Position numbers and translations under genes: made by a program
The notes under the pieces: generated by a model
What the model was told of the DNA's origin: nothing
Seen by the model: the letters and a program-made list of their open reading frames with translations, nothing else
Databases searched by the model: none
Shown here: piece by piece, positions 35,527 through 55,173 of the stretch
Layout of the letters: every line of letters begins with the position of its first letter
Numbering within the stretch: position 1 is the first letter of the stretch
From: Solirubrobacter deserti
GTDB taxonomy: Bacteria > Actinomycetota > Thermoleophilia > Solirubrobacterales > Solirubrobacteraceae
Direction: 5' to 3'
DNA length: 57,985 bases
NCBI RefSeq assembly: GCF_027587175.1
Contig: NZ_JAPCID010000051.1
Coordinates: 1 to 57,985, forward strand

Positions 35527-35530
<4 letters not shown>

Positions 35531-36420
35531 AGCCCGTCTTCTTCCTGCGCGAGGCGCTGCGGGCGCTCAAGCGCAACGCGATCCCGAGCTTCGCCGCCAT
35601 GGCCACCGTGCTCGTCACGGTGCTCGTGCTCGGCGTGTTCATCCCGGTCGTGCAGGCCACGACCGGCGCGGCCAACGAGGTCCGCGGCAAGGTGATCGCC
35701 GACGTCTACCTCAAGACGGACGCCAAGCGGGCCGACATCGAGCGTGTCGACCGCCTGCTCAAGTCCGAGCCGATGATCTCGAAGGTCGAGTTCATCTCCA
35801 AGGACCAGGCCTACAAGGCCGAGCGCGAGCGCAACCCGAAGGCCTACGAGCTGCTCGGCTCCAACCCGCTGCCGGACACGTTCCGCATCACGCCGGGCAA
35901 TCCGGACGACATCGGCAAGATCCGCGACGCGCTCGCGCCCTCGGCTCCCGGCGGCGGCCGCACGGTCGTCGATCCCGCGATCGACGAGGTGCGCAACCGC
36001 GAGGAGGACACCAACAAGATCCTCGCGGTGACCAACGTCGTGAAGATCACCATGGCGCTGCTCGCGGGCCTGCTCGGCATCGCGTCGATGCTGCTGATCG
36101 CGAACACGATCCGCCTGTCGCTCTACGCCCGCCGGCGCGAGGTCGAGGTCATGAAGCTCGTGGGCGCGACGGACTGGTTCATCCGCTGGCCGTTCGTGCT
36201 CGAGGGCGTGATCGTCGGCCTGTTCGGCGGCGTGGTCGCGATCCTGCTCCTGGCGGTGGTCAAGATCGCCGTGGTCGACCCGCTCGCCGCGGACTTCGCG
36301 CTGATCGCGGCGCCCGAGACGATCGACTTCCCGCTGCTGATCGGCCTGCTGCTCGTCGCGGCCGTGTCGGTCTCCGCGCTGGGCTCCGGCCTCAGCCTGC
36401 GGAAGTTCCTACGCGTCTAG
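35527..36420 (+). CDS. ftsX: cell-division protein FtsX
   Basis: 297 aa with the FtsX layout: one N-terminal membrane helix (VLVTVLVLGVFIPVV), a ~130-residue extracellular domain, then three helices (TMALLAGLLGIASMLLIANTI, VIVGLFGGVVAILLLAVV, LLIGLLLVAAVSVSALGSGL). The cytoplasmic loop with LYARRREVEVMKLVGATDWFIRWPF contacts FtsE. Its extracellular loop probably activates a cell-wall hydrolase; none is adjacent. The 3' end overlaps the LOV gene by 29 bp on the other strand. Confidence 0.93.
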
Positions 36421-38035
36421 CGACCAGCACCGCCACGTCGTCGCGGCGCGCCCCCGCGTGCGCCGCGGCGCGGTCCACCCGCCCGGCGATCGAGGACGCG
36501 TCCTCGCGCGTGGCCGCGCGCAGCAGCGCCTCGAGCCCCGCGAGCCCGTACTGGTCGCCGGTCGTGCGGGCCTCGGTCACGCCGTCGGTGAACAGCACGA
36601 GCGACTCCTGCTCGCCGAGCTCGAACGTGACGTCGAGGAGCTTCGGGTCCGGCACCCAGCCGAGCACGGAGCCGGGCTTGCCGACCGGCTCCACGTCGCC
36701 GTCGCGCCGCATCACGAGCGGCATCGGGTGTCCGGCGCAACAGATCGTCGCTCTGAGATCGACCGGTGGGGCTGCCGCCCCCCCGGAGCCCCCGCGCTTC
36801 CGGCCGTTGACCTCGAGCCGGCAGAACGCAACCGTGCAGTAGCGCCCGCCGCCCTCACCGCGCTCCGACAGCAGCGTGCGGTTGATGACGTCGAGGATCC
36901 TGCTCGGGCTCTCCTCGTACTGGGCCGCGGTGCGCACCGTGTGGCGGACCTGCGCGGTGAGCGCGGCGGCGCGCGCGCCCTTGCCGGTGACGTCGCCGAT
37001 CACCAGATCGATGCCGTTCTCGCGGGGCAGGACGTCGTAGAAGTCGCCGCCGATGAGGCTGCCGTCGCCCGCGGGCCGGTAGCGCGCGGCAATGTCCATG
37101 CCGTCGAACGTCGGCAGGCGCTCCGGGAGCAGGCCCTGCTGCAGCGACCGCGCGACCGTGCCGAGGTTCTCGTACAGGCGCGCGTTGTCGATCGCGAGCG
37201 CGGCGCGCAGCGCGAGGTCCTCGGCCAGCACGAGATCCTGCTGGCCGTACTGGCGACCGGGCTGGCAGGCCGCGAAGGTGACGGCGCCGAAGATCGTCCC
37301 GCGCGCCTTCAGCGGCACGATCATCGCCTTGGCCGGCCGTCCGAGCAGCGTGTCGGTGTCGACGATCTCGGCCCGGCCGCTCTGCACGGCGCGCACGAGG
37401 GACTCGTTGTCCTGCACCGCGGACGGGTTGGGACGCCGGCGCAGCATGTGCTCCATCTCCGCGTCGGCGGCCGCGGACGAGAGCCGGCGCACCTCGTCGT
37501 GGCGGATCTCCTCCACGAGGCAGACGTCGCCCAGGAACGGCACGGACAGGCGCGCCAGCGAGGCGAGCGTCGAGTCCAGGTCCAGCGACGCGTTCAGCAG
37601 CGGACCGGCGTTGGCGAGGAAGCTCGAGCGGCGCTCGGCGATCTCGGCCAGCGCGCGCGGCTCCCGGTAGGCGGTGACGTCGACCTGCACGCCGACGAAG
37701 CGCGCGACCGTGCCGTCCGCGTCGCGCACCGGCGCGATGTGGACCTCGTTCCAGAACGGGGTGCCGTCCTTGCGGTAGTTGCGCAGGTGGACGGTGGTGG
37801 AGCGCTCCTCCGCGATCGCGCGGCGCAGCTCGTCGATCGCCTCCGGGTCCGTGTCGGCCCCCTGCAGGAAGCGGCAGTTGCGCCCGAGCACCTCGTCCTC
37901 GGCGTAGCCCGTCATGTCGAGGAACGACTGGTTGACGTAGACGATCGGGTGGTCCGGCCGGTGCGGGTCCGTGAGCAGGAACCCGGTTCCGGACTGGTCG
38001 AGCGCCTCGTCGAAGAGGGCCAGATCGCCGGCCAC
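36392..38035 (-). CDS. LOV-GAF-PP2C (SpoIIE-type) blue-light-regulated phosphatase
   Basis: 547 aa. Residues ~10-125 form a LOV domain with the flavin signature GRNCRFLQG (photoactive Cys54), then NYRKDGTPFWNEVHIAPV and FVGVQVDVT, which supply the flavin-binding Asn, Phe and Gln. Residues ~145-290 are a GAF domain. Residues ~305-545 are an RsbU/SpoIIE PP2C phosphatase with IGGDFYDVLP, DVTGKGARAA, FTDGVTEART and DDVAVLVARR. It should dephosphorylate a phospho-STAS partner when blue light forms the flavin-Cys adduct. The STAS gene lies directly upstream (3-bp gap) and a HATPase kinase gene is divergent, forming a complete partner-switching module. A ~15-residue Gly/Ala insert sits in the PP2C domain. 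GTG start. Confidence 0.92.
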   Translation of the reverse strand: MAGDLALFDEALDQSGTGFLLTDPHRPDHPIVYVNQSFLDMTGYAEDEVLGRNCRFLQGADTDPEAIDELRRAIAEERSTTVHLRNYRKDGTPFWNEVHIAPVRDADGTVARFVGVQVDVTAYREPRALAEIAERRSSFLANAGPLLNASLDLDSTLASLARLSVPFLGDVCLVEEIRHDEVRRLSSAAADAEMEHMLRRRPNPSAVQDNESLVRAVQSGRAEIVDTDTLLGRPAKAMIVPLKARGTIFGAVTFAACQPGRQYGQQDLVLAEDLALRAALAIDNARLYENLGTVARSLQQGLLPERLPTFDGMDIAARYRPAGDGSLIGGDFYDVLPRENGIDLVIGDVTGKGARAAALTAQVRHTVRTAAQYEESPSRILDVINRTLLSERGEGGGRYCTVAFCRLEVNGRKRGGSGGAAAPPVDLRATICCAGHPMPLVMRRDGDVEPVGKPGSVLGWVPDPKLLDVTFELGEQESLVLFTDGVTEARTTGDQYGLAGLEALLRAATREDASSIAGRVDRAAAHAGARRDDVAVLVARRVGTSAG

Positions 38036-38038
38036 CGG

Positions 38039-38353
38039 CTATTCCTCGAGGTTGAGCCGGTCCGTCACTTCCGCGAGCTCCAGGACACGGCGCGGCTCGC
38101 CGTCACCCGGGATCACGATGAACGTCCGGCCCTCCTCGCGGGCACGGACGTCGGCGTCCAGGACGAGCTGCAGGCCGGTGGAGTCGAAGAACGACACCTC
38201 CCGCAGGTCGAGCACCAGCACCTGGGGCTTGTCCTCCTCGGCGCGGCGGAGCTCCTCCTCCGCGCGAGGCCCCGTCTCCATGTCCAGCTCACCCCGGATC
38301 ACGATCCGGAGCTTGCCGTTGGACTGCTGTCTTTCAACTTTAAATGAGAGCAC
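38039..38353 (-). CDS. STAS-domain anti-sigma factor antagonist
   Basis: 104 aa STAS domain: IRGELDMETGPRAEEEL, then VLDLREVSFFDSTGLQLVLDA with the phosphorylatable Ser in DSTG. In RsbV-type switching the unphosphorylated form sequesters the anti-sigma kinase and frees the sigma factor. GTG at 38351-38353 is chosen because AAGGAA lies 4 nt upstream; the in-frame ATG at 38395 would collide with the divergent gene's start. Co-transcribed with the LOV phosphatase, its predicted activator. Confidence 0.88.
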   Translation of the reverse strand: MLSFKVERQQSNGKLRIVIRGELDMETGPRAEEELRRAEEDKPQVLVLDLREVSFFDSTGLQLVLDADVRAREEGRTFIVIPGDGEPRRVLELAEVTDRLNLEE

Positions 38354-38364
38354 GACGTTCCTTG

Positions 38365-38382
38365 CGGGTACGGCTGTACCCG
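38365..38382 (+). promoter_or_regulatory. inverted repeat between STAS and HATPase genes
   Basis: Perfect 7-bp arms CGGGTAC and GTACCCG with a 4-nt spacer, in the 40-bp divergent gap of the LOV module. It lies 11 bp before the HATPase ATG and just upstream of the STAS ribosome site. It could be an operator controlling both directions or the base of a hairpin in the HATPase leader. Confidence 0.4.
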
Positions 38383-38393
38383 TCAACCGGCCC

Positions 38394-38768
38394 ATGGTCT
38401 ACTCGCAAAGCTTCCCAAAAACTCGAGCGGCAGCCGCCCACGCCCGCGAGATGCTGGCGCAGATGGACGGTGCGCTGCCTGAATCGACGCTCGACGACGC
38501 CCGTCTGCTCACCTCCGAGCTGGTCGCCAACGCCGTCGAGCACGTGCCCGATGACGGCGCGGTCGAGGTCCGGATGGACGTCTCGGATGAGCGTCTACGC
38601 GTCGAGGTGTACGACAATGGCGCCGGGTTCGAGTGGGTGCCCCGGCGCGCCGGCGCGGGCAACGAGCGCGGGTGGGGGTTGCACTTCACCGACGCGGTCG
38701 CCTCCCGCTGGGCGGTGGAGCGCGGGGAGCGCACCTGCGTCTGGTTCGAGCTCGAAGTGCGGGCTTAG
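38394..38768 (+). CDS. RsbW-like HATPase (anti-sigma factor kinase)
   Basis: 124 aa HATPase_c domain of the GHKL type: N-box LTSELVANAVEHVP, G1 box YDNGAGFEW, G2 box RGWGLHFTDAV. Stand-alone domains like this are serine kinases of STAS proteins and anti-sigma factors. Divergent from STAS and LOV-PP2C genes, so it is the probable switch partner: blue light would favour STAS dephosphorylation and sigma release. The cognate sigma factor is not in the window. Confidence 0.86.
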   Translation: MVYSQSFPKTRAAAAHAREMLAQMDGALPESTLDDARLLTSELVANAVEHVPDDGAVEVRMDVSDERLRVEVYDNGAGFEWVPRRAGAGNERGWGLHFTDAVASRWAVERGERTCVWFELEVRA

Positions 38769-38807: not shown

Positions 38808-39980
38808 ATGCGAACGCTCCGCACCGCTCTTCTCATCCTCCTCGTCCCGCTCGCGTTGATCGTCGGCATCCTGCTCGGCGGACACCCCGAGTTCCTGCCC
38901 GGCTTCGCGCGTGACACGCTCGTCGCCGACAGCGACGGGCGCCTGTACGAGGAGGCGGTGGACAAGATCGAGGCCGACTACTACCGCGAGGTCGACCGCG
39001 GCAAGCTGCTCAACACGTCGCTCGAGAAGGCCGTGGAGTCGCTCGACGACCAGTTCTCGCACTACTTCTCGCCGACCGAATACCACGCGTTCCAGCTCGA
39101 CACCGAGGGCGCCTTCGAGGGCGTCGGGATGAGCGTGACGGCCGTGGCCGAGGGCCTGCGCGTGGCCGAGGTCTACGACGGCTCGCCGGCCAAGGAGGGC
39201 GGGCTCAAGCCCGGCGACGTCATCACCAGCGCCAACGGCAAATCGCTGAAGGGCAAGACCTCCGAGGAGTCCACGACGCTGATCAAGGGGCCGGCCGGAA
39301 CCGAGGTGACGCTGGGGCTCAAGGACGGGCGCAAGCTCAAGCTCGAACGTGCCAAGGTGGACATCCCGATCGTCCAGAGCCGGACCGAGACCCATGACGG
39401 CAAGAAGATCGCGCACGTGTCGCTCGCCGGCTTCACGTCGGGCTCGGGCGACGACGTCGACCGCGCGGTCAAGGAGCAGCTCAAGCGGGGCGCCGAGGGC
39501 GTCGTGTTCGACCTGCGCCACAACGGCGGCGGGCTGCTCAACGAGGCCGTGGAGGTCGCGTCCGTGTTCCTCAAGGACGGGCGGGTCGTGTCCACCAAGG
39601 GCCGCTCGCGGCCGGAGCGCAAGTACAACGCGACGGGCGGCGCGATCGCGTCCGACGTCCCGGTGGTCGTGCTCGTCGACCAGGGCTCGGCGTCGGCGTC
39701 GGAGATCGTCACGGGCGCGCTGCAGGACCGCAAGCGCGCCAAGGTCGTCGGCACGCGCACGTACGGCAAGGGCGTCTTCCAGGAGATCATGCGGCTCGAG
39801 AACGGCGGCGCGCTGGACATCACCGTCGGCGAGTACTTCACGCCGTCCGGCCGCAACCTCGGCGGCGGTGGGGTGCAGAAGGGCGCGGGTATAACCCCGG
39901 ACATCCAGGCGTCCGACAATCCCGAGACCGAGCCCGACGAGGCGCTCGACAAGGCACTGGAGACGGTGACCAAGGATTGA
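38808..39980 (+). CDS. ctpA: C-terminal processing peptidase (S41 family)
   Basis: 390 aa. One N-terminal membrane anchor or signal (LLILLVPLALIVGILLG), an S41 N-terminal helix bundle (~45-95), a PDZ domain (~95-170: GVGMSVTAV...GLKPGDVITSANGK) and the S41 catalytic core with nucleophile Ser in GSASASEIVTGAL and Lys in RTYGKGVFQE. It cleaves C-terminal tails of secreted or membrane proteins. It sits downstream of ftsEX, the same neighbourhood as ctpB in Bacillus. Its stop overlaps the rnr TTG (TTGA). Confidence 0.94.
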   Translation: MRTLRTALLILLVPLALIVGILLGGHPEFLPGFARDTLVADSDGRLYEEAVDKIEADYYREVDRGKLLNTSLEKAVESLDDQFSHYFSPTEYHAFQLDTEGAFEGVGMSVTAVAEGLRVAEVYDGSPAKEGGLKPGDVITSANGKSLKGKTSEESTTLIKGPAGTEVTLGLKDGRKLKLERAKVDIPIVQSRTETHDGKKIAHVSLAGFTSGSGDDVDRAVKEQLKRGAEGVVFDLRHNGGGLLNEAVEVASVFLKDGRVVSTKGRSRPERKYNATGGAIASDVPVVVLVDQGSASASEIVTGALQDRKRAKVVGTRTYGKGVFQEIMRLENGGALDITVGEYFTPSGRNLGGGGVQKGAGITPDIQASDNPETEPDEALDKALETVTKD

Positions 39981-44229: not shown

Positions 44230-45572
44230 ACACTTGCTGCACCGAACACGCCCGCGCGTCCGCCGGCCTGCCCGCGATCGAGCCCGGCATGCCCGAGCCC
44301 GCGGGCACGGGCCTCTCGCGCCGGAACTTCCTGCTGCGCAGCGCCGGCCTCGGCCTGGCCGTCTACGGTGCCGGCAAGCTCGCGAAGCTGCCGGCGTTCG
44401 AGACCGGCGTCGCGCACGCCCAGGGCGCGCCGCAGGGCACCGTGCTGCTCAACGTCTTCCTGGACGGCGGCGTCGACAGCCTCTCCGTGCTGGCCCCGGT
44501 CGAGGACGCGACCTACCGCCGGCTGCGCCCGCGTCTGGCGCTCAACGACGGCCGCCCGTTCGCCGAGGACCCGCGCCTGCGCTGGCATCCGTCCGTGAAC
44601 GCGCTCGCCGACCTGCACGCCGAGGGCAAGGTCTCCGTCCTGCCCGCGGTCGGCTACACGGGCGCCGACCAGTCGCACTTCACCTCGCGCCACTTCTGGG
44701 AGGTCGGTGCGCTGGACGCCAACCTGCGCACGGGCTGGCTCGGCCGCGTGCTCGACGGCGTCGGCGCGCCCGACAACCCGCTGCAGGGCGTGTCGCTCGA
44801 CGGCCATCTCGCACCCGCGCTCGCGACCGCCCGCAACCCCGTCGCCGCGATCGCCAAGCCGGAGGAGTTCGGCTTCTGGGCGCCCGGCGCGTGGGGACCC
44901 GCGGACGAGCTCGCCGTGCCCGCCTTCACGCAGATCGGCCGATCGTTGCAGGGCTCCGGCGATCCCGCGATCGCGCAGGCCGCGCGCGCCGCCGCCTTCG
45001 CCGGCACCGTGCGCGACGCGCTCGCGCCGCTGGGCGCCGACGGCAAGCCGCTGTACGCGCCCGCCGCCGCCTACCCGCAGACCGCGGACAACTTCCCCAA
45101 GCGGCTCGCCGGGTTCGCCGCGATGCTCGCCGCCGGCCTCCCGATCCGCGCCGCCTCCGTCCGTGCGCCCGGCACCTGGGACACGCACGCCAACCAGCAG
45201 GAGACGATGCCCAAGAACCTCCAGCTCACGTTCGACTCGCTGCTCGCGTTCCAGCGCGACCTCGAGGCGCGCGGGCTCGCCGACCGGGTGCTCACGCTCG
45301 TGTGGTCGGAGTTCGGGCGCCGCGCGGCCGAGAACGGCTCGGGCACCGACCACGGCGCCGCCGGCGTCGGCTTCCTCATCGGCACGCGCGCCGCGGGCCG
45401 CATGATCGGCGAGTTCCCGGGCGTGGACAAGCTCGACGCGGGCGGCAACCTGCGCGCCACCTCGGACTTCCGCGGGCTCTACGGCGCGCTGTGCGGCGAC
45501 TGGTTCGGCGTCGACCCGGCGGCGGTCCTGCCCGACGCGCGCGGCCTCGGGAAGCCGGTGATCCTCAAGTGA
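44226..45572 (+). CDS. DUF1501 protein, Tat-exported
   Basis: 448 aa. Twin-arginine signal: LSRRNFLLRSAGLGLAVYGAG, with a cleavage-like VAHAQG about 45 residues on. The rest is a DUF1501 (sulfatase/alkaline-phosphatase-like) fold: LLNVFLDGGVDSLSVL, SHFTSRHFWEVG, TWDTHANQQETMP and WSEFGRRAAENGSGTDHG. Exported already folded, possibly with a bound cofactor. Overlaps of 4 bp on both sides make an operon with DUF1800 and a cupredoxin. Confidence 0.87.
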   Translation: MNTCCTEHARASAGLPAIEPGMPEPAGTGLSRRNFLLRSAGLGLAVYGAGKLAKLPAFETGVAHAQGAPQGTVLLNVFLDGGVDSLSVLAPVEDATYRRLRPRLALNDGRPFAEDPRLRWHPSVNALADLHAEGKVSVLPAVGYTGADQSHFTSRHFWEVGALDANLRTGWLGRVLDGVGAPDNPLQGVSLDGHLAPALATARNPVAAIAKPEEFGFWAPGAWGPADELAVPAFTQIGRSLQGSGDPAIAQAARAAAFAGTVRDALAPLGADGKPLYAPAAAYPQTADNFPKRLAGFAAMLAAGLPIRAASVRAPGTWDTHANQQETMPKNLQLTFDSLLAFQRDLEARGLADRVLTLVWSEFGRRAAENGSGTDHGAAGVGFLIGTRAAGRMIGEFPGVDKLDAGGNLRATSDFRGLYGALCGDWFGVDPAAVLPDARGLGKPVILK

Positions 45573-45919
45573 GGCGCTTGCTGTTCATCTTCGCGCTGCT
45601 GTACCTCGCCGCCCCCGCGCAGGCCGCGGCGCCGCAGCGCCTGCTGGTCGAGGCGACCGAGTTCCGCTTCACGCTCTCGCGCACGAACGTCAAGCCCGGC
45701 GCGGCCATCGTCCAGCTCGCGATCCGGGGCGAGGATCCGCACGACCTCAAACTGCGTCAGATCGGCAAGGTCCGGGCGCAGATCGCCTCGGTGCCGGAGA
45801 CGCTGCCGGGCGGTGTCGCCGAGTGGCGGGGCAAGCTGAGCAAGGGTCGCTGGGAGCTCTACTGCTCGATCGAAGGGCACAAGCGGGCGGGCATGCGCGC
45901 CGTGCTGAACGTGAGGTAG
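45569..45919 (+). CDS. secreted cupredoxin-like copper protein
   Basis: 116 aa with a Sec signal (LLFIFALLYLAAPAQA). The late segment ELYCSIEGHKRAGM has the Cys-x5-His-x4-Met order of a type 1 copper loop, and the first His ligand is likely in EDPHDLKLRQ. So it is a small blue-copper electron carrier on the outer side of the membrane. GTG start overlaps the DUF1501 stop by 4 bp, implying a joint function, perhaps electron transfer to or from the DUF1501/DUF1800 proteins. Confidence 0.75.
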   Translation: MRRLLFIFALLYLAAPAQAAAPQRLLVEATEFRFTLSRTNVKPGAAIVQLAIRGEDPHDLKLRQIGKVRAQIASVPETLPGGVAEWRGKLSKGRWELYCSIEGHKRAGMRAVLNVR

Positions 45920-45939
45920 TTGCCTGTCAAAATGGAGGT

Positions 45940-46380
45940 GTGGCCGATATCGCCAACAACCGCCAGGCTTCCTACAAGTACAACCTGCTCGACAAGTGGG
46001 AGTGCGGCCTCGTGCTCACGGGCACCGAGGTCAAGTCGCTGCGCGACAAGAAGGCGGTCATCAAGGACGGCTACGCGACCGTCTACAACGGCGAGGTCTG
46101 GCTCCACAACGTCCATATCGCGCCGTATCCGCAGGCCACGCGCGAGAACCACGAGCCCGAGCGCCCGCGCAAGCTGCTCATGCACCGGCGCGAGATCGAG
46201 AAGCTGATCGGCAAGACCAAGGAGAAGGGCCTCACGCTGGTCCCGACGCGGCTCTACTTCAAGGGCCGTCACGCCAAGGTCGAGATCGCGCTCGGTCGCG
46301 GCAAGGACGCCAAGGACAAGCGGCACTCGATCAAGGAGCGCGAGATGAAGCGCGAGATCGAGCGCAGCTTCAGGCGGTGA
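45940..46380 (+). CDS. smpB: SsrA-binding protein SmpB
   Basis: 146 aa, complete. NNRQASYKYNLLDKWECG, LVLTGTEVKSLRDKKAVIKDGYA, RENHEPERPRKLLMHRREI, and the basic C-terminal helix that mimics the tRNA anticodon (KRHSIKEREMKREIERSFRR). It carries tmRNA to stalled ribosomes. GTG 45940 is the only sensible start; GGAGG at 45934 is almost adjacent, so spacing is unusually tight. The partner ssrA lies 5 kb downstream in this window. Confidence 0.95.
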   Translation: MADIANNRQASYKYNLLDKWECGLVLTGTEVKSLRDKKAVIKDGYATVYNGEVWLHNVHIAPYPQATRENHEPERPRKLLMHRREIEKLIGKTKEKGLTLVPTRLYFKGRHAKVEIALGRGKDAKDKRHSIKEREMKREIERSFRR

Positions 46381-47206
46381 AGCCCAGGTCGAGCGGCCCC
46401 TGCGGGATGATCCGCTTCGGGTTCAGCTCGTCGTGCGTCGTGTAGTAGTGCTCCTTGACCTCGTCGAGCGCGAACGTCTCGGCGACGTGCGGCTGCGCGT
46501 AGAGGTCCCGGGTGTACCGGAGCAGGTTCGGAAATTCGATCAGGCGCTTGCCGTTGCAGCGGAAGTGCGTGTGGTAGACGGCGTCGAAGCGCAGCAGCGT
46601 GGGGAGCAGGCGCCAGTCGGCGAGCGTGATGTCGTCGCCGGCGAGGTAGGTGCGGTCGGCGAGCAGGGCCTCCAGGCGGTCCAGCGCGGAGAACACGCCG
46701 CGGAACGCCTCGTCGTAGGCCTCCTGTGAGCGCGAGAAGCCCGCGCGGTACACGCCGTTCTGGAACTCCTCGTAGATCCAGCCGTTGAGCTCGTCGATCT
46801 CGGCGCGCTTGTCGGCCGGGTACAGCGTGCCGCCCGTCCACTCGTCGAAGATCACGACGATGTCGGCGGACTCGTTGTTCACGATCCGCCCGGTCTCCTT
46901 GTCCCACAGGACCGGCACCGAGACGCGGCCCTCGAAGCTCGGGTCGGTGACGTCGTAGCCCTGTTGCAGGAAAGCGAAGCCGTTGATCTCGTCCGCGAAG
47001 CGGCCGCCGGGAAACGCCCAGCCGCGCTCGTCGCGGAACGGGTGCGCATACGAGATGCCGATCTCCAACCCCGTGACCGCCCGAACGATCGCCGCCCGCT
47101 GACTCCACGGGCACGCGAGCGCGACGTAGAGGTGGTGGCGTTCCGGTCCACCCTCAGGGCGGTCGCGGAACTTGCTCTGCTGGCGGACGAAGGCTCCGGC
47201 GCTCAC
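46370..47206 (-). CDS. glutathionyl-hydroquinone reductase-like thiol transferase
   Basis: 278 aa GST-fold protein. HHLYVALACPWSQRA holds the active-site Cys (CPW-type motif), followed by VPVLWDKETGRIVNNESADI, and the C-terminal helical domain with DITLADWRLLPTLLRF. The family (YqjG/PcpF) reduces glutathionyl-hydroquinones. Actinobacteria usually lack glutathione, so another low-molecular-weight thiol may be used; that is inference. Overlaps the smpB end by 11 bp. Confidence 0.88.
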   Translation of the reverse strand: MSAGAFVRQQSKFRDRPEGGPERHHLYVALACPWSQRAAIVRAVTGLEIGISYAHPFRDERGWAFPGGRFADEINGFAFLQQGYDVTDPSFEGRVSVPVLWDKETGRIVNNESADIVVIFDEWTGGTLYPADKRAEIDELNGWIYEEFQNGVYRAGFSRSQEAYDEAFRGVFSALDRLEALLADRTYLAGDDITLADWRLLPTLLRFDAVYHTHFRCNGKRLIEFPNLLRYTRDLYAQPHVAETFALDEVKEHYYTTHDELNPKRIIPQGPLDLGFTA

Positions 47207-47222
47207 GGGTGGAGTCTTACCG

Positions 47223-47315
47223 TCAGGGCTTGCCGGTGAACACGACCAGTCTGCGGAACGGGGGCTTGGACGTGGTGGTGGGTGCTGCGGTGGGAGTGGG
47301 CGCGGTCTGGGTCAT
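47223..47315 (-). CDS. 30-residue small ORF with strong ribosome site
   Basis: Too short for ordinary gene calling. Encodes 30 aa: a Thr/Pro/Ala-rich half (MTQTAPTPTAAPTTTSK) followed by PPFRRLVVFTGKP. The ATG (47313-47315) is preceded at optimal distance by AGAAGGAG. The leader-plus-core look resembles a small secreted or modified peptide, but no modifying enzyme is adjacent. It lies 17 bp downstream of nothing in particular: the GST-like gene starts on its 3' side, so the two could be co-transcribed. Confidence 0.45.
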   Translation of the reverse strand: MTQTAPTPTAAPTTTSKPPFRRLVVFTGKP

Positions 47316-47401
47316 GCGGTGACTCCTTCTGCTGGTTCGATGGGGATCGTACCAAAGGTTCGACGCGCATCGAAACAGCGGAAAGAGCGTGCGAAATGTC
47401 A

Positions 47402-47426
47402 CGAGCGCGCTTGCATCGCGCGCTCG
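47402..47426. terminator. GC-rich hairpin
   Basis: 9-bp perfect stem CGAGCGCGC / GCGCGCTCG with a 7-nt loop, no T-run. It is placed between the small ORF's promoter region and the hairpin after the disulfide reductase. Bases 47316-47497 hold no other gene; the GGTTCGAY motif occurs twice (about 47334 and 47359) and TTCGA-N6-TCGAA once, which may be regulator sites for the small ORF. Confidence 0.35.
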
Positions 47427-47446
47427 CGGCGGCGTAGGGTCGGCTC

Positions 47447-47489
47447 AGACGCGGAGGTCGGAGACGCGAAAGTGGCTCCCTCCGCGTCT
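47447..47489 (-). terminator. probable terminator of the disulfide reductase gene
   Basis: 11-bp perfect arms AGACGCGGAGG and CCTCCGCGTCT with a 21-nt loop, beginning 8 bp after the stop of the leftward flavoprotein gene. There is no U-tract, as is common for terminators in very GC-rich actinobacteria. Confidence 0.55.
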
Positions 47490-47497
47490 CGACTTCT

Positions 47498-48859
47498 TTA
47501 AGCGTCGAGCCTGAGCCAGATCTCGGAGCGGGTGGGGAAGCTCGGGATCGCGTGACGCAGCGTGGCGAGCGGCACTTCGCCGACGACCGCGATCGTCGCC
47601 GCGTGCAGGAAGTCCGCGATCTCCGCGCCGGTCATCGTGCAGCCGACGATGATCTTGCGCTCGCGGTCCACCAGCCACTGCACCGTGCCCGGCTGGTCAC
47701 GGCCGTAGAACGAGCCGCCGGCGTTGCCCGAGGTCGAGGTCGTGACGACGTCGACGATCAATCCCGCCTGCTCAGCGGTCTCGGTCGTGTGGCCGACCGC
47801 CGCGACCTGCGGCTCGGTGAAGACGACGCGCGGGGACAGCGGGCCGTCGGCGCCGTGCGAGAGCGCGTGATCGTGGCCGAGCACGTGGTCGGCGGCCACC
47901 CGGGCCTGGTACTTGCCCATGTGGGTGAACAGCGCGCGGCCGTTGACGTCGCCGAGCGCGTACAGCCACTCGTGGCCGGCCACGCGCATGTGCGCGTCCA
48001 CGTGGACGGGCTTGCCGGGTTCGAGCCCGAGCTGCTCGAGCCCGACGCCTTCCGTCTGCGGCTTGCGGCCGAGCGCGACGAGCAGCTTCTCGCCCGTCGC
48101 CGTGGTGCCGTCGTCCATATGGACGGTGACCATCCCGTCCTCGGCCTGCTCGACCTTGGTCGCCTTGCGGCCCGTGCGGATGTTCACGCCGAGCTTGCTC
48201 AGCGCCTCGGTGAGCTCGATGCAGGCGAACTCCTCCTCATTGGGGAGCAGCCGGCGCGCGCCCTCGATCAGCGTCACCTGGGAACCGAGCGTCTGGAACG
48301 CCTGCGACATCTCCACGCCGACGACGCCGCCGCCCATCACCACCACGCTCTCCGGGACCGTCTTGGTGACCGTCGCGTCGCGGTTGGTCCACGCGCCGTC
48401 GATGGCGTCGAGCCCTTCGATCGGCGGCATCAGCGGGAGCGAGCCCGTCGCCAGGAACACGGCGCGCTTGGCCTCGAGCTCCTCGTCGCCGACGGTCACG
48501 CGCCGCTCGCCGGTGATCACGGCGCGGCCGCGGATGAGCTCGATCCCGCGGTCCTCGAGCCACGGCATCTGCGCGCTGTCGTCGAGGTCGTGGATGATCT
48601 CGTCGCGGCGCGCGAGCACGGCCGCGGCGTCGAGCTCGCCCGTTACGGCCTCCGCCGCGCCCGGGATGCGCTTGACCTCGGCCAGCGCCTCATACGGCCG
48701 CAGCAGCGCCTTCGACGGCATGCACGCCCAGTACGAGCACTCGCCCCCGACGAGGCGATCCTCGACGATCGCGACGCTCAGTCCCTTCTCCGCGAGCCGG
48801 CCCGCGGCCACCTCGCCCGCTGGTCCCGCACCGATCACCACGACATCGAAGCTCCGCAT
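47498..48859 (-). CDS. FAD-dependent pyridine-nucleotide disulfide oxidoreductase (Lpd/MerA-like)
   Basis: 453 aa. FAD motif VVVIGAGPAGEVAAGRLA; redox-active disulfide GGECSYWACMPSKALL (Cys-x4-Cys); NAD(P)-binding VVVMGGGVVGVEMSQAF; second FAD motif YALGDVNG; and a C-terminal dimerisation domain ending HAIPSFPTRSE. The catalytic His-Glu pair of Lpd/glutathione reductase is spaced differently, by an extra SF. No 2-oxoacid dehydrogenase genes are nearby, so it may reduce another disulfide or quinone. 4 bp downstream of mmpL. Confidence 0.86.
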   Translation of the reverse strand: MRSFDVVVIGAGPAGEVAAGRLAEKGLSVAIVEDRLVGGECSYWACMPSKALLRPYEALAEVKRIPGAAEAVTGELDAAAVLARRDEIIHDLDDSAQMPWLEDRGIELIRGRAVITGERRVTVGDEELEAKRAVFLATGSLPLMPPIEGLDAIDGAWTNRDATVTKTVPESVVVMGGGVVGVEMSQAFQTLGSQVTLIEGARRLLPNEEEFACIELTEALSKLGVNIRTGRKATKVEQAEDGMVTVHMDDGTTATGEKLLVALGRKPQTEGVGLEQLGLEPGKPVHVDAHMRVAGHEWLYALGDVNGRALFTHMGKYQARVAADHVLGHDHALSHGADGPLSPRVVFTEPQVAAVGHTTETAEQAGLIVDVVTTSTSGNAGGSFYGRDQPGTVQWLVDRERKIIVGCTMTGAEIADFLHAATIAVVGEVPLATLRHAIPSFPTRSEIWLRLDA

Positions 48860-48863
48860 GGCG

Positions 48864-50858
48864 TCACCCTAGCTTCGACGGCCACCAGACCTTCGCGCCG
48901 AGGTCGTGCACGAGGGCGGGCACGAGCACGCTGCGCACGAGCAGCGTGTCGAGCAGGACGCCGAACGCGACCACGGTGCCGAGCTGCGTGAGCACCACCA
49001 GCGGCAGGACGGCGAGCGCGCTGAACGTGCCCGCGAGCACGATGCCCGCCGACGTGATGACGCCGCCGGTGACCGCCAGCGCCGCGATCACCCCGCGGCG
49101 CGTGCCCTGCTGGAGCGCCTCCTCGCGGGCGCGCGCCATCAGGAAGATCGTGTAGTCGATCCCGAGCGCGACCAGGAACACGAACGCGAGCAGCGGAAGC
49201 GCGGGGTCGACCGCCGGCAGGCCGAGGATGACGTCGAAGATCACGACGCCCGCGCCGAGCGCGGCGGCCGCCGACAGCGCGGTCGCGAGCAGCAGCAGGA
49301 CCGGCGCGACGAGCGCGCGCAGCAGGCCGATCAGGACGATCAGGACGACGAGCAGCGTCAGCGGCGGGATCACGAGGTTGTCGCGCTCGGCGGCCTGCCG
49401 CAGGTCGTAGGACTGGGCGGTCTGCCCGCCGACCAGGGCGCGTGGCTCGGCCTGCTGGACGGCGTCCCGCAGGCGCGGGATGGACTGCACCGCCTCCTCG
49501 GAGAACGGGTCGTCGGCGAGCACGACGCTCAGCTGCGTGCCCGGTTCGCCCTCCTCCTCGCGCTGGACCTCGACCGCGTTCTTGACGGCGTCCACGTCGC
49601 CGCCGCGCGGCACGATGACCGTCGCAGGCGCGGAGGTGCCAGGCGGGAACTGCTCGCCCAGGAGCTCCTGGCCTTCAACCGCTTCCGGGTTCCCGCGCAG
49701 CTGCTGCTCCTGCGTGAGCGAGGTGTCCAGGCCCGTGAGGCCGAGCGCGAGGATGACCAGGACGATCATGCTGCCGACCCACAGCGGACGCGGGCGGGCG
49801 GCGATGCGCCGGCCGAGGGCGCGCCAGCTCCTGTAATCGTCGTCGAGGTCGTCGCCGTGGCGCGGGATGAACGGCCAGAACGCGCGCCGGCCGGCGATCG
49901 TGAGCGTGGCGGGGAGGAGCGTGAGGCTCATCAGCAGCGCGACGGCGACGCCCGCCGCGCCGAGCGGGCCGATCGATGCGGACGAGTCCACCGCGGCGAA
50001 GACGAGCGTGAACAGGCCGACGATGACCGTCGCGCCGGAGGCGAGGATCGCGGGCGCGGCGCCCTTGAGCGCGGTGGCCATCGCGTCGGTCGCGCGCTCG
50101 TGGCGGGTCAGCTCCTCCCGGTAGCGGGCGACCAGCAGCAGCGCGTAGTCCGTCGCCGCGCCGAACACGAGCACGGACAGGATGCCCGCGTTCTGGCCGT
50201 TGATGACCAGGCCCGCCTCACCGAGCAGGGCGGCCAGGCCGCGCGTGGCGCCCTCGGTGAGGATGACGGTGAAGAACGGCACCAGCCAGAAGACCGGCGA
50301 GCGGTAGATGAGGATCAGCAGCAGTAGGACGAGCCCGCCGGTCACCGCCAGCAGGCGCGTGTCCGCGCCGGCGAAGACGTTCTTGAGGTCGGTCGAGAAG
50401 CCCGCCGGGCCGGTCACGGCGTGCTCGAGGCCGTCCGGGAAGGACTGCTCGCGCAACGTGTCCACCGCCTCGGCGACGAGGTCGGAGTTCTGGCCCTTGA
50501 GCGGGATCGCGAGCAGGCCGGCGTCGTCGGTGAACGTGGGCTCGGGGACCTGCGGCGTCGCGAGCGGGAGGCCGTCAAGGTCGCGCAGGCCGTTCAGCGC
50601 GTCCTTGTCCTGCTGGGTCAGCCCGCCCTCGCGCGCGATCACGACCACCGCGGGGCTGACGTCGCCGGACGGGAAGGCGCGCGCCGCCTGCAGCGCCTGC
50701 ACCGACTCGGCGTCGCCGGGCAGGAACTCCGCGAGGTCGCTCTTCTGGACCTCCTCGAGCTTGCCCGCCTGGGACGACAGCCCGCCGGCGATCAGCACGG
50801 CCAGCACCGCGACGACGAAGCGCGACCGGCGGCCCGCTGAGATCAAGAGAAGACGCAC
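48864..50858 (-). CDS. MmpL-type RND transporter
   Basis: 664 aa, about 12 membrane helices in two similar halves, each with an N-terminal helix and an external domain. Proton-relay Asp/Tyr motifs appear as GAATDYALLLVARYREEL in the first half and ALGIDYTIFLMARAREE in the second. MmpL proteins export lipids or drugs; smaller ones like this often confer resistance. GTG start with GGAG upstream. Divergent from a TetR gene that probably represses it. Confidence 0.92.
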   Translation of the reverse strand: MRLLLISAGRRSRFVVAVLAVLIAGGLSSQAGKLEEVQKSDLAEFLPGDAESVQALQAARAFPSGDVSPAVVVIAREGGLTQQDKDALNGLRDLDGLPLATPQVPEPTFTDDAGLLAIPLKGQNSDLVAEAVDTLREQSFPDGLEHAVTGPAGFSTDLKNVFAGADTRLLAVTGGLVLLLLILIYRSPVFWLVPFFTVILTEGATRGLAALLGEAGLVINGQNAGILSVLVFGAATDYALLLVARYREELTRHERATDAMATALKGAAPAILASGATVIVGLFTLVFAAVDSSASIGPLGAAGVAVALLMSLTLLPATLTIAGRRAFWPFIPRHGDDLDDDYRSWRALGRRIAARPRPLWVGSMIVLVILALGLTGLDTSLTQEQQLRGNPEAVEGQELLGEQFPPGTSAPATVIVPRGGDVDAVKNAVEVQREEEGEPGTQLSVVLADDPFSEEAVQSIPRLRDAVQQAEPRALVGGQTAQSYDLRQAAERDNLVIPPLTLLVVLIVLIGLLRALVAPVLLLLATALSAAAALGAGVVIFDVILGLPAVDPALPLLAFVFLVALGIDYTIFLMARAREEALQQGTRRGVIAALAVTGGVITSAGIVLAGTFSALAVLPLVVLTQLGTVVAFGVLLDTLLVRSVLVPALVHDLGAKVWWPSKLG

Positions 50859-50860
50859 AG

Positions 50861-50907
50861 AGTTGACTCCAACTGTCTAAATGGCAGTGACTGTCAGCGT
50901 ATACGCT
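50861..50907. promoter_or_regulatory. operator cluster between mmpL and tetR
   Basis: Three dyads in under 50 bp: AGTTG-N4-CAACT (50861-50874), TGAC-T-GTCA (50888-50896), and a perfect 12-bp palindrome AGCGTATACGCT (50896-50907). The last one holds a -10-like TATACG that would place the tetR transcript start next to its GTG. Typical of a TetR-controlled divergent promoter. Confidence 0.5.
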
Positions 50908-50913
50908 TCTCGT

Positions 50914-51504
50914 GTGCCGGAGGATCGCCCGACGCTGCGTGACCGCAACCGCGCCCGTGCGCGGGCCGAGATCGTCGCCGCCGCGCAGACGCTGTTCGTC
51001 GAGCAGGGCTACGCCGAGACGTCGGTCGAGCAGATCGCCGAGGCGGCCGGCGTCGCGCCCCGGACGGTGTTCCGCCACTTCCCGCGCAAGGACGACATCG
51101 TCTTCCACCGGCACGCCGAGCAGGTCGGCCGCTTCGCCGAGCTGCTGAACGAGGCCCCGGCGGCGACGCCCACGCTCGACGCCATGGTCGACGCGCTGCT
51201 CGCGCTCCTGCGCCTGGACGACCCGACCTCCGACGGCACCATGCTCCGTGTCCTGGACCGCGAGCCCGAGCTCCAGCGCCGCGACGCGGCCCTGGTCGCC
51301 GACCACCACGCCGCGGTCGTCACCTTCCTGCGTGGACGCGGTGCCGACGCCCAGCGCGCCGAGCTGCTGGCGGGCGCGTTCATGGGCGCGATGAGCGCCG
51401 CACGCCGGCTCGTGCTCCTGCAGCCGGACGTTCCGCCGCGAGAACACCTGGCCGCGGCCGTCTCACTGCTGCGCGGACTGGATTGGCCGGCCCCGAGCCT
51501 CTAG
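50914..51504 (+). CDS. TetR-family transcriptional regulator
   Basis: 196 aa from GTG 50914 (an ATG at 50881 would add 11 residues reading through the operator). HTH: RAEIVAAAQTLFVEQGYAETSVEQIAEAAGVAPRTVFRHFPRKDDIVF. The C-terminal ligand domain is less conserved. It probably represses mmpL and itself. The stop is 19 bp before mature tmRNA; the ssrA promoter (-10 TAGAAT, 51502-51507) overlaps its end. Confidence 0.9.
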   Translation: MPEDRPTLRDRNRARARAEIVAAAQTLFVEQGYAETSVEQIAEAAGVAPRTVFRHFPRKDDIVFHRHAEQVGRFAELLNEAPAATPTLDAMVDALLALLRLDDPTSDGTMLRVLDREPELQRRDAALVADHHAAVVTFLRGRGADAQRAELLAGAFMGAMSAARRLVLLQPDVPPREHLAAAVSLLRGLDWPAPSL

Positions 51505-51523
51505 AATGTCGTGCTCGACACCA

Positions 51524-51909
51524 GGGGACGACAGGCTTCGACGTGGTCGGTTCGTGGGGTCGGTTGCGAGTCGGGGTACCGGAGGCCCCGTAAAAAACCG
51601 GTACAACACAAATGCGGACAAGAATCCCGCTCTCGTGGCCGATGAGGCTCACGAGTACGCTCTCGCCGTCTAGCCGAAACTAGAAGGTGAGCCTCAGCTC
51701 CCGGAGCCTACGACGGGGATCAGCTGAGTCATAAGTAGGCTCGCCCTCCAGACGCCTGCCTGAGCCGACGGAGGGGACTTCCGATCGGGCTGGCCCCTCT
51801 CAACCTTTGTCGGTGGAGCAAGCGAGGGGCGAGATCCAGACCACCGAATACGCTCGTAGACGCCGGCTTGGCGCGACTGCGGACGCGGGTTCAATTCCCG
51901 CCGTCTCCA
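51524..51909 (+). ncRNA. ssrA: transfer-messenger RNA (tmRNA)
   Basis: About 386 nt. The 5' end GGGGACGACAGGCTTCGAC and the 3' end with T-arm GCGGGTTCAATTCCCGC and acceptor CGTCTCC-A form the tRNA-like domain; the terminal CCA is not encoded (ACT follows). The tag reading frame runs from the resume codon GCG (51614) to TAG (51671-51673) and encodes ADKNPALVADEAHEYALAV, 19 residues. It is longer than most tags and ends ALAV in place of ALAA. It rescues stalled ribosomes together with SmpB (45.9 kb). Confidence 0.95.
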
Positions 51910-51914
51910 CTCGT

Positions 51915-51968
51915 ACAACCCGTCGCGCAGGACCTCGAATTGGGGGCCTGTGCGGCGGGTTGTTCTTT
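51915..51968 (+). terminator. Rho-independent terminator of ssrA
   Basis: 17-bp stem ACAACCCGTCGCGCAGG / CCTGTGCGGCGGGTTGT (two G-U pairs), 15-nt loop, followed by TCTTT. It begins 5 nt after the tmRNA 3' end. Bases 51969-52113 beyond it hold nothing I can identify. Confidence 0.8.
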
Positions 51969-52113
51969 GCGCGGGTCCGAACGGCCGCGCAGCGGAAAAC
52001 CGCTCCTTGCGAGCGCGATCGGGTGCGTAGGGAGCAAGTGGGGAGCACGCTGCTCCCTATCGCGTGGGTCGTGCTCCTCACGTTGTCGCGGTCCGCCTGA
52101 GCGTTCGGCCCAG

Positions 52114-52149
52114 GAACGAAAAAGACCGGGTGCCCGCCCGGTCTCGTTC
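52114..52149. terminator. bidirectional-looking hairpin terminator
   Basis: Stem GACCGGG / CCCGGTC (52124-52130, 52137-52143) extended by GAACGA / TCGTTC across an A-rich bulge. An A-run before and TCTCGTTC after suit termination in either direction. It separates ssrA from the accessory region. Bases 52150-52337 show no gene. Confidence 0.55.
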
Positions 52150-52337
52150 TGCGGCCGTCGCCGGCCACTCCGGCTCTGACGCGGTTCGCGTCGGAGCCCA
52201 CATATGAACTGTTCTTGAATCGTACCCGTCCGCCGGATGGATCGCGTGCGGCCTGATTCGGGACCCTCCCAGCTGCGCCGCGAGCGTCCGTTCGCGAGCG
52301 AGCTGCTTCGTGCTGCCCTGCGCCGCTGGCGCTGGCG

Positions 52338-53933: not shown

Positions 53934-53975
53934 CCACGTTCACGACGCTCCGGGCGGATCAGGGGCTACGCAATT

Positions 53976-54146
53976 CGCTACACAACGGATTCTGTAGCGC
54001 CCGTCCGCTGATCCCTGGTGTGGGGCGGTGGTGGTGGGGGGCTTGGATCCGACCCCGCCCGCCCTACGTGACATTTGAGGGTGGTGGCGAGCGGGGTCGG
54101 ATCCAATCCCCCCAAGAGGTGGTGGTGAGGGATCAGCGGACGGGCG
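53976..54146. repeat. large composite inverted repeat (candidate origin or transfer site)
   Basis: Nested dyads. Outer arms 19 bp perfect (CGCCCGTCCGCTGATCCCT 53998-54016; complement 54128-54146). Inner arms 23 bp with one mismatch (54036-54058 and 54091-54113), including 16 perfect bp TTGGATCCGACCCCGC. A 32-nt centre can pair further (CCCT/AGGG). A separate dyad CGCTACA-N10-TGTAGCG (53976-53999) abuts the left arm. No gene occupies 53934-54380; after the repeat, the stretch to 54380 is purine-rich. Such structures are typical of replication origins, transfer origins or strong transcript ends. Confidence 0.7.
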
Positions 54147-54380
54147 AGGTGGTGCAGGGACAGGGGGAAACAGCAGAGAACTGGAAGCGAGGGCAGGGAC
54201 AAGAACGGCAACGGCAGCACGGCCACAGGAGAGAAGAAGGGGAGAGGGCCGTATATCGGCGCGAAAGCCGACGAGCGGCGGGAGTCGCGGGAGACAGCAG
54301 GCGTGCGGCCAGTGGGCAGGAGGCGCGCGGTGAGTGTCCGGGGTGGTCGAGGGCGTGCGCGCGGGCCAGGGCCGCGAAGC

Positions 54381-55097: not shown

Positions 55098-55173
55098 TTC
55101 GACGCTCGTCGAAAATAGCGTCTATCCACACAAGCGCTACTTTCGATCGCTGTCGAAACAGCGGTTGTCCACC
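55098..55173. other. cluster of TCGA dyads with two DnaA-box-like sites
   Basis: In 76 bp: TTCGACG-ct-CGTCGAA (55098-55113), CTATCCACA (55122-55130), TTTCGA-N6-TCGAAA (55141-55158) and TTGTCCACC (55165-55173). The two nonamers each differ by one base from the DnaA box TT(A/G)TCCACA. The stretch is less GC-rich than its surroundings. It fits a small replication origin of an integrated plasmid-like element; function unproven. Confidence 0.45.

What the first reader, a model, noticed from the sequence alone, without database searches (positions are those of the whole stretch)
36392..38768. Complete blue-light partner-switching module: LOV-GAF-PP2C phosphatase, STAS antagonist, HATPase kinase
Seen: an intact LOV signature (GRNCRFLQG, NYRKDG, VGVQVDVT) fused through GAF to an RsbU/SpoIIE phosphatase. 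It is operonic with a STAS protein carrying the phospho-site DSTG and divergent from a stand-alone GHKL kinase, with a 7-bp dyad in the 40-bp gap. Known: RsbU/RsbV/RsbW logic controls sigma-B-type factors; YtvA is a LOV-STAS input. Inference: light directly sets the phosphatase, so all switch parts sit in one 2.4-kb locus. In a carotenoid maker (cluster 30 kb away), photoprotection is an obvious output.
Basis: partly seen in the sequence, partly recalled or inferred. Interest (0 to 1): 0.75.

Follow-up and report, generated by a model that had tools for sequence, protein, structure and literature searches.

The report
Light-sensing phosphatase switch in Solirubrobacter
A soil bacterium carries a small set of linked genes that should let blue light set a protein switch of the kind that controls stress genes, and two related species seem to have cut the light sensor, or the whole phosphatase half, out of the same spot, which gives natural controls for testing it.

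Summary
Window 36392-38768 encodes a LOV-GAF-SpoIIE/PP2C phosphatase, a DSTG-type STAS protein in the same operon, and a divergent RsbW-like HATPase. The trio occurs in 7 other genomes (one of the same species), 3 genera in all. The dyad holds opposed GGGTAC boxes, is conserved in four species, and resembles two overlapping SigB-type -10 elements; -35 evidence is weak.

A LOV-phosphatase-STAS-HATPase partner switch is the best reading, but the module is not complete: no sigma gene lies in the window or near the module, and the genome holds 6 SigB/F/G-type sigmas and 25 SpoIIE domains, so the output is unknown. The carotenoid cluster is real, but nothing ties it functionally to the module.

Main new result: an erosion series. 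Other genera carry REC-LOV-GAF-PP2C elsewhere in the genome; at the Solirubrobacter ftsX-ctpA site, the window species has LOV-GAF-PP2C, S. soli has GAF-PP2C with a REC scar and no LOV, and G196 keeps only the HATPase plus a STAS scar. Light input looks detachable; the HATPase outlives it. LOV-SpoIIE fusions are a known category, so this is a new member of a known kind.

The parts
36392..38035 (-). LOV-GAF-SpoIIE/PP2C phosphatase gene (547 aa, GTG start, GAGGAA ribosome-binding-like site inside the STAS 3' end)
   Evidence: Pfam PAS_9, GAF, SpoIIE over cut-off
37670..38014 (-). LOV domain (residues 8-122); adduct cysteine C54 codon at 37874-37876; the only match of this LOV in the own genome at E<=1e-10
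37184..37585 (-). GAF domain (residues 151-284), ligand unknown
36413..37018 (-). SpoIIE/PP2C catalytic domain with GGDFYD, GDVTGKG, FTDG, RRDD motifs
38039..38353 (-). STAS protein (RsbV/SpoIIAA-like), start refined to GTG 38353; phospho-site Ser codon at 38180-38182 (DSTG)
38365..38382 (.). dyad CGGGTAC-GGCT-GTACCCG: two opposed GGGTAC boxes, each 22 nt from a start codon; proposed overlapping divergent SigB-type -10 elements
38394..38768 (+). stand-alone HATPase_c_2 protein (124 aa, RsbW/SpoIIAB-like) with R18, E42, N46, D74, G76, G78, G93, G95
35527..36420 (+). ftsX, left neighbour; marks the syntenic insertion site (context, not part of the switch)
38808..39980 (+). ctpA-like protease gene, right neighbour; ftsX and ctpA adjoin directly in 3 of 3 outgroup genomes examined

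Best explanation
It is a blue-light-gated partner-switching module. Shown by sequence: a canonical LOV domain is fused through a linker and GAF domain to a SpoIIE-type phosphatase, encoded just behind an RsbV-like STAS protein and opposite an RsbW-like HATPase. Inferred: in one light state the HATPase holds a SigB-family sigma factor and phosphorylates the STAS serine. Blue light forms the flavin-Cys54 adduct, changes the helical linkers and switches the PP2C domain. Dephosphorylated STAS then captures the HATPase and frees its target. The sigma factor is not encoded here; it would be one (or more) of six SigB/F/G-type sigmas elsewhere in the genome. The opposed GGGTAC boxes suggest that both arms are themselves transcribed by a SigB-type polymerase (feedback), from promoters that cannot both be occupied. 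The LOV domain is a detachable input: S. soli lacks it at the same locus, and in G196 the HATPase persists without either partner.
For: Domains and motifs. The trio is together in G179, G194, G063, S. phytolaccae and the more distant G005, G158, G164; in G164 the HATPase has moved to the other end of the operon but stays linked. STAS Ser58 (8 sequences) and HATPase R18/E42/N46/G76/G78/G93/G95 (9 sequences) are invariant. The HATPase profile's best PDB match is RsbW (8.7e-11); its model (pLDDT 80) matches RsbW and SpoIIAB at ranks 1-13, with UsfX and Rv1364c in the next few ranks beside a Leptospira entry. The phosphatase's best PDB match is Rv1364c. Two lower-identity relatives (L060, L063) are PP2C-HATPase fusions; L060 and L064 have a STAS gene next door and a SigB/F/G sigma gene within about 3 kb. 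GGGTAC lies 12-22 nt upstream of the HATPase start in 8 of 9 module or remnant loci (same-species G179 not counted) against 0.002-0.006 expected per 30 nt. Precedents: S. coelicolor SigB-type promoters with GGGTAC as -10, and divergent anti- and anti-anti-sigma genes at sigI (PMC8346170, passages); PP2C control through dimeric helical linkers below PAS/GAF/receiver domains (PMC12143880, passages).
Against: No sigma gene was found near the LOV trio in any of the eight genomes that carry it (G158's contig is only 8 kb). NCBIfam RsbW/SpoIIAB and anti-anti-sigma cut-offs are not reached. GTTT-N14-16-GGGTAY is not enriched in the genome (4 against 5 in the control), nor clearly GGTT-N15-18-GGGTAC (54 against 44 over 6 genomes), and no convincing -35 precedes the HATPase-side box. 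G164 has no GGGTAC there. Four of the six own SigBFG genes have no GGGTAY within 200 nt upstream. G063's HATPase has Asn at the G1-box Asp. S. soli keeps the switch without LOV, so light is not needed for the rest to be kept; the homologous S. soli HATPase start codon is not ATG/GTG/TTG. The phosphatase model was too poor to use (pLDDT 53).
Confidence: 0.6

Rival explanations
1. The HATPase-STAS pair does not control a sigma factor but another protein (for example a second-messenger enzyme or another STAS/HATPase of the large network); light changes cross-talk in that network.
For: No linked sigma found near any LOV-bearing locus; 25 SpoIIE and many HATPase matches in the genome; in S. [quoted passage not shown] G196 keeps the HATPase with no local STAS or phosphatase.
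Against: The nearest solved relatives of the HATPase are anti-sigma kinases; a homologous PP2C-HATPase/STAS set in L060 and a PP2C/STAS pair in L064 lie near a SigB/F/G sigma gene.
Confidence: 0.2
2. The LOV domain is used mainly as a redox or flavin sensor, or the protein acts light-independently; light is incidental.
For: LovK and YtvA have light-independent roles (PMC4844311, passages); S. soli keeps GAF-PP2C, STAS and HATPase without LOV.
Against: The adduct cysteine is kept in 8 of 8 ortholog loci across three genera, although a sensor that does not use the adduct would not need it (inference).
Confidence: 0.12
3. The dyad is an operator for a dimeric transcription factor rather than two overlapping -10 elements.
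For: Perfect two-fold symmetry of GGGTAC-N4-GTACCC; arms and 4-nt spacing kept in 4 species; SigB-type -35 boxes weak or missing and full SigB-type patterns not enriched.
Against: GGGTACNNNNGTACCC occurs once, only here, in each of 4 of the 9 genomes searched and not in the other 5, so there is no regulon of exact sites; the two boxes overlap in S. soli, are tandem plus overlapping in G196, and only one box remains in G005 and G158, which fits separate -10 boxes better than one fixed operator.
Confidence: 0.3
4. The trio is decaying, with no present function in this species.
For: Two of seven Solirubrobacter genomes have lost parts.
Against: Intact frames and motifs in five genomes of the genus; dN/dS 0.14-0.27 for STAS and 0.14-0.70 for HATPase, below 1 in all pairs computed.
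Confidence: 0.05

Closest known systems
LOV-SpoIIE phosphatases (named as a typical prokaryotic LOV effector class in PMC4844311, passages)
   Same: LOV photosensor fused to a SpoIIE/PP2C domain; 15 of 26 further actinobacterial loci examined also carry GxNCRFLQ, and LOV-GAF-SpoIIE was confirmed by Pfam in the two of those 15 that were tested
   Different: Here the phosphatase comes with its own STAS gene and a divergent HATPase; none of those 15 loci shows either in its fetched flanks of up to 1.5 kb
B. subtilis RsbP/RsbU-RsbV-RsbW-SigB general stress switch
   Same: PP2C phosphatase, STAS antagonist and HATPase kinase, with serine and ATP-binding motifs
   Different: Light sensor on the phosphatase itself; HATPase divergent; no sigma gene in the locus
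YtvA / Lmo0799 LOV-STAS photoreceptors
   Same: LOV input into a STAS/PP2C/HATPase stress pathway
   Different: YtvA acts in the stressosome with LOV fused to STAS; here LOV is fused to the phosphatase and the YtvA-family cut-off is not reached (164.7 against 250 bits)
M. tuberculosis Rv1364c (PAS-PP2C-HATPase-STAS fusion)
   Same: Best PDB match of the phosphatase (6e-11) and among those of the HATPase
   Different: One polypeptide there (PMC12143880, passage); three genes and a LOV domain here
S. coelicolor sigI locus (prsI/arsI)
   Same: Divergently encoded anti-sigma and anti-anti-sigma genes (PMC8346170, passages)
   Different: Those genes lie upstream of their sigma gene; no phosphatase or light input is described in the passages seen

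Membership tests
LOV photoreceptor | GxNCRFLQ with adduct cysteine | tested here: met
   GRNCRFLQG in P0001; kept in 8 of 8 ortholog loci
LOV photoreceptor | flavin-contacting Asn/Asn/Gln positions aligned with solved LOV domains | tested here: met
   NYR, FWN and G(V/I)Q aligned in the three best PDB matches; the roles of these residues are recalled
LOV photoreceptor | binds flavin and forms a light adduct | not testable with these tools
   needs purified protein
RsbU/RsbP-type SpoIIE (PP2C/PPM) phosphatase | SpoIIE domain with acidic metal-binding motifs | tested here: met
   PF07228 125.5 bits against 25; GGDFYD, GDVTGKG, FTDG, RRDD in sequence; their metal role is recalled
RsbU/RsbP-type SpoIIE (PP2C/PPM) phosphatase | helical dimerising linker before the PP2C domain | tested here: inconclusive
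   model mean pLDDT 53
RsbV/SpoIIAA anti-sigma antagonist | STAS fold with phosphorylatable Ser in DS(T/S)G | tested here: met
   PF01740 and PF13466 over cut-off; Ser58 invariant in 8 sequences
RsbV/SpoIIAA anti-sigma antagonist | NCBIfam ant_ant_sig / spore_II_AA cut-offs | tested here: not met
   48.2 against 53.45 and 34.5 against 114.75 bits
RsbW/SpoIIAB anti-sigma kinase | HATPase_c_2 with N box, G1 and G2 boxes, RsbW-like fold | tested here: met
   PF13581 51.2 against 27.4 bits; profile and fold matches to RsbW and SpoIIAB; motifs
RsbW/SpoIIAB anti-sigma kinase | NCBIfam RsbW / SpoIIAB equivalog cut-offs | tested here: not met
   26.9 against 145, 26.4 against 135, 23.4 against 155.05 bits
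RsbW/SpoIIAB anti-sigma kinase | binds a sigma factor and phosphorylates the STAS protein | not testable with these tools
   needs biochemistry
complete SigB-type locus | cognate sigma gene in the locus | tested here: not met
   none of the 24 SigBFG matches (6 over cut-off) lies on the window contig; none in the 8-20 kb stretches around the seven other LOV-bearing loci
YtvA family | LOV fused to STAS, NCBIfam YtvA cut-off | tested here: not met
   164.7 against 250 bits, match in residues 7-131 only

The most novel reading that the evidence does not exclude
Light is a removable accessory of a sigma-control switch whose core is the HATPase. An ancestral REC-LOV-GAF-PP2C/STAS/HATPase set entered the ftsX-ctpA site of early Solirubrobacter and was then trimmed separately in three lineages: REC lost, REC and LOV lost, STAS and PP2C lost. 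The HATPase and a GGGTAC box before it were kept in all six Solirubrobacter species seen. The overlapping divergent -10 boxes form a minimal two-way feedback element in which kinase and antagonist/phosphatase transcription exclude each other.
Probability: 0.3. Interest if true: 0.62.

Novelty: new member of a known kind. Interest (0 to 1): 0.47.

Why it matters
If it works as inferred, blue light acts on the phosphatase of a SigB-type switch through one protein, without a stressosome. The natural LOV-less S. soli version and the HATPase-only G196 version are ready-made controls for what each part adds. A 2022 review says that light-regulated orthogonal sigma factors are 'not realized to date' (PMC9614035, passage); this trio plus its sigma would be a natural starting point. 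It also puts the one LOV domain found in this soil actinobacterium into a testable pathway.

Tried and rejected
Regulon search with the dyad: GGGTACNNNNGTACCC occurs at one place each in G000, G063, G147 and G194, always this locus, and not in the other 5 genomes of the search, so exact copies do not mark a wider regulon.

Canonical SigB promoters genome-wide: GTTT-N14-16-GGGTAY 4 hits against 5 in the reversed control; GGTT-N15-18-GGGTAC 54 against 44 over 6 genomes. The SigB-type reading of the dyad therefore rests on the conserved -10 boxes, on GTTAGA-N12-GGGTAC before the G158 HATPase, GTTAGG-N14-GGGTAC before the own C124 HATPase and a poorer GTAGAC-N15-GGGTAC on the window's STAS side (all read by eye), and on GGGTAC within 100 nt upstream of the profile match of 2 of 6 own SigBFG genes; the other 4 have none.

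Promoter capture of ctpA-rnr by the HATPase promoter, as the reason why G196 kept the HATPase: weakened, because ctpA appears to have its own TANCGT-like box in the HATPase-ctpA gap (by eye).

S. soli N-terminus as a LOV remnant: rejected; it fits the REC start (scores 33-50, shuffle p<=0.001) better than any of seven LOV ends (16-23, p>=0.025). A multiple alignment had placed it against the LOV end.

Carotenoid link: the cluster is real. crtI is about 30 kb away on the same contig in G000, G179 and G063; in the drafts of G194 and G147 it is on another contig, so linkage is not assessable. crtI is not found at 1e-40 in G201 (S. soli) and lies on another contig in G196. Seven genomes, two of one species, are too few to conclude.

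Full-length phosphatase model discarded (pLDDT 53); no fold search was run with it. The dN/dS values are simple Nei-Gojobori estimates in GC-rich genes and only show ratios below 1. Short-fragment shuffle tests use the composition of 12-20 residues and were made after the resemblance was seen.

Literature: searches, 93 of an open-access library showed, in their listings and in the passages opened, LOV-SpoIIE named as a class but no experimental study of a LOV-PP2C/STAS/HATPase module; most hits were seen as listings only and subscription papers are mostly not held.
Full report
What is there. The window belongs to a Solirubrobacter genome: a 100% identical phosphatase lies in Solirubrobacter sp. 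CPCC 204708, and the next hits are S. phytolaccae and S. soli (contig lengths equal those of G179, G147 and G201). At 36392-38035 (-) lies a 547-aa protein with a LOV-type PAS domain (PAS_9, 6.8e-26), a GAF domain and a SpoIIE/PP2C domain (3.2e-36), each above its Pfam cut-off. The LOV part matches solved LOV domains at up to 7.3e-39, with the adduct cysteine (C54), both asparagines and the glutamine aligned. It is the only match of this LOV in the genome at E<=1e-10. Three bases upstream, on the same strand, ends a STAS protein with DSTG. Divergent to it is a 124-aa HATPase. The STAS start is better placed at GTG 38353: AAGGAA lies just upstream, and four other Solirubrobacter species have ATG or GTG at that codon.

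Is the trio more than a chance neighbourhood? Of 201 genomes of the order, 40 have a match to the phosphatase at 1e-60 or better. In the 30 loci fetched from that search, 8 carry GRNCRFLQ (window and same species included) and 22 do not; the other places listed there were not examined for LOV, except that 25 further loci of the genus search were scanned and had none. All 8 LOV loci, from three genera, have the STAS gene just upstream and an HATPase gene next to the operon. In G164 the HATPase sits downstream on the same strand instead of divergent, so the link survives rearrangement. STAS Ser58 is invariant in 8 sequences, and HATPase R18, E42, N46, G76, G78, G93 and G95 are invariant in 9. 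G063 has Asn at the G1-box Asp, which is a caution about its ATP binding.

What the parts resemble. A profile of the nine HATPases finds RsbW first (8.7e-11), SpoIIAB next among anti-sigma factors (about 1e-6), and Rv1364c (3e-4); two blue-light histidine kinase entries score about like SpoIIAB over their ATP-binding part. Its model (pLDDT 80, from three sequences) matches RsbW and SpoIIAB at ranks 1-13, then a Leptospira entry, UsfX and Rv1364c, ahead of ordinary histidine kinases. The phosphatase domain's only PDB sequence match at 0.01 is Rv1364c (6e-11). NCBIfam equivalog cut-offs for RsbW and SpoIIAB, and the anti-anti-sigma superfamily cut-off, are not reached, so the claim is 'works like', not 'is an ortholog of'. 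Lower-identity relatives in the order include PP2C-HATPase fusions (L060, L063; open frames of 1028 and 848 aa). L060 has a STAS gene next door and a SigB/F/G sigma gene within about 1 kb of the phosphatase match; L064 has a PP2C/STAS pair with such a sigma gene about 3 kb from it. This is the best hint that the output is a sigma factor.

What is missing. None of the 24 SigBFG-type matches of the genome, six of them above the cut-off, lies on the window contig. The genome also holds 25 SpoIIE domains and 62 HATPase_c_2 matches, 38 marked as over the cut-off, many of which are probably ordinary histidine kinases. The stretches fetched around the seven other LOV-bearing loci (8-20 kb each) hold no sigma gene found with the six own sigmas at 1e-12. 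So 'complete module' is not right, and the target cannot be named from sequence.

The dyad. CGGGTAC-GGCT-GTACCCG (38365-38382) has its core GGGTAC-N4-GTACCC conserved with identical arms and spacing in four Solirubrobacter species, window included. That pattern occurs at exactly one place, here, in each of 4 of the 9 genomes searched and in none of the other 5. GGGTAC lies 12-22 nt upstream of the HATPase start in 8 of 9 module or remnant loci (window, G194, G063, S. phytolaccae, S. soli, G196, G005, G158; not G164), where about 0.002-0.006 would be expected per 30 nt. These loci are related, so the eight are not independent; in S. soli the distance is to the homologous codon, which is not a standard start. 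In S. coelicolor, GGGTAC occurs as the -10 element of SigB-type promoters and the -35 is less conserved (PMC8346170, passages). Two of the six own SigBFG genes and the own C124 HATPase also have GGGTAC within 100 nt upstream of their profile match; the other four SigBFG genes do not. I therefore read the dyad as two opposed SigB-type -10 boxes, each 22 nt from its start codon, with an operator as the rival. Against this, genome-wide searches for full SigB-type promoters show no clear excess over the reversed control, and the -35 on the HATPase side is not convincing.

A series of losses at one site. In G005, G164 and G025, ftsX and ctpA adjoin with no module between them, and the trio of G005 and G164 lies elsewhere. 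In Solirubrobacter the trio sits between ftsX and ctpA. In S. soli the STAS (71%) and HATPase (51%) are kept, and the phosphatase begins with about 20 residues that match the start of the REC-like domain of G005, G158 and G164 (local scores 38, 47, 33; shuffle p<=0.001), joined to the linker that follows LOV (EQTARVAAQAAERRSTF against EQRARQAAEAAERRSSF in G158). This is what an in-frame deletion of the rest of REC plus LOV would leave. In G196 an HATPase with an open frame and all motifs (54%) remains between ftsX and ctpA; the opposite strand still carries MLPVSIERR, matching the first codons of STAS (shuffle p<0.001 against G194, G063, S. phytolaccae and S. soli, 0.008 against the window), beside GGGTACGGCGGGTACCC. 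The neighbour-gene tree places G196 and then S. soli outside the LOV-bearing clade. The REC match of the outgroup proteins is below Pfam's cut-off (27.9 and 25.7 against 30.2 bits; not reported for G164), so the receiver is divergent and perhaps degenerate. Parsimony gives REC-LOV-GAF-PP2C as ancestral and three separate reductions, but with one genome for each of the two LOV-less states this is an inference.

Wider distribution. In 396 genomes of the phylum, 28 match the phosphatase at 1e-75. Of 26 newly fetched loci, 15 carry GxNCRFLQ, all in one other family (f20), and none of those 15 has a STAS or HATPase profile hit in its fetched flanks of up to 1.5 kb; the two of the 15 that were tested are LOV-GAF-SpoIIE by Pfam. 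LOV-SpoIIE proteins are named as a typical LOV effector class in a 2014 review (PMC4844311, passages). The architecture is therefore a known kind; the linked STAS/HATPase set and the loss series are what is new here.

Mechanism. By analogy with RsbU and RsbP, whose PP2C dimers are proposed to be switched through helical linkers, as in phosphatases with PAS, GAF and receiver domains (PMC12143880, passages; the word LOV does not occur in its main text as a whole word), light would change the LOV dimer and linker and so the phosphatase. Dephosphorylated STAS binds the HATPase, which drops its target. Shown: the parts, their linkage, conservation and losses. Inferred: flavin chemistry, light polarity, kinase activity, sigma target, promoter type. 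My own full-length model was too poor to test the linker.

Carotenoids. CruG, CrtD, CruF and CrtI relatives lie at 0.15-6.4 kb, about 30 kb from the module, also in G179 and G063. crtI is found in all five LOV-bearing genomes of the genus, is not found at 1e-40 in S. soli (G201), and is found on another contig than the HATPase in G196. This is a hint at most.

Noticed in passing
window 51524-51912 (+): tmRNA gene (Rfam 161 bits), tag peptide ADKNPALVADEAHEYALAV.
   Followed up: no
L114 4992-6299; L117: S. soli phosphatase without LOV, with a REC-start scar: apparently a natural in-frame removal of the light sensor.
   Followed up: yes
L147 around 5646-6100: Solirubrobacter G196 keeps only the HATPase between ftsX and ctpA, with a nine-codon STAS scar.
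   Followed up: yes
L028, L029, L030: Orthologs carry an extra N-terminal receiver-like domain (Response_reg below the Pfam cut-off in two, not reported in the third).
   Followed up: partly
L163-L173, L175, L178-L180: LOV phosphatase loci of another actinobacterial family, without STAS or HATPase in the short flanks.
   Followed up: partly
G000:C68 about 44275-55232 (L069): Cluster with a SigBFG sigma, a second sigma-like gene, three STAS, two HATPase and a SpoIIE match: a partner-switch hub in the same genome.
   Followed up: no
window 48864-51504: MMPL-family transporter gene divergent from a TetR-type regulator.
   Followed up: no
window 36392-36420: The phosphatase gene and ftsX overlap tail to tail by 29 bp.
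   Followed up: no
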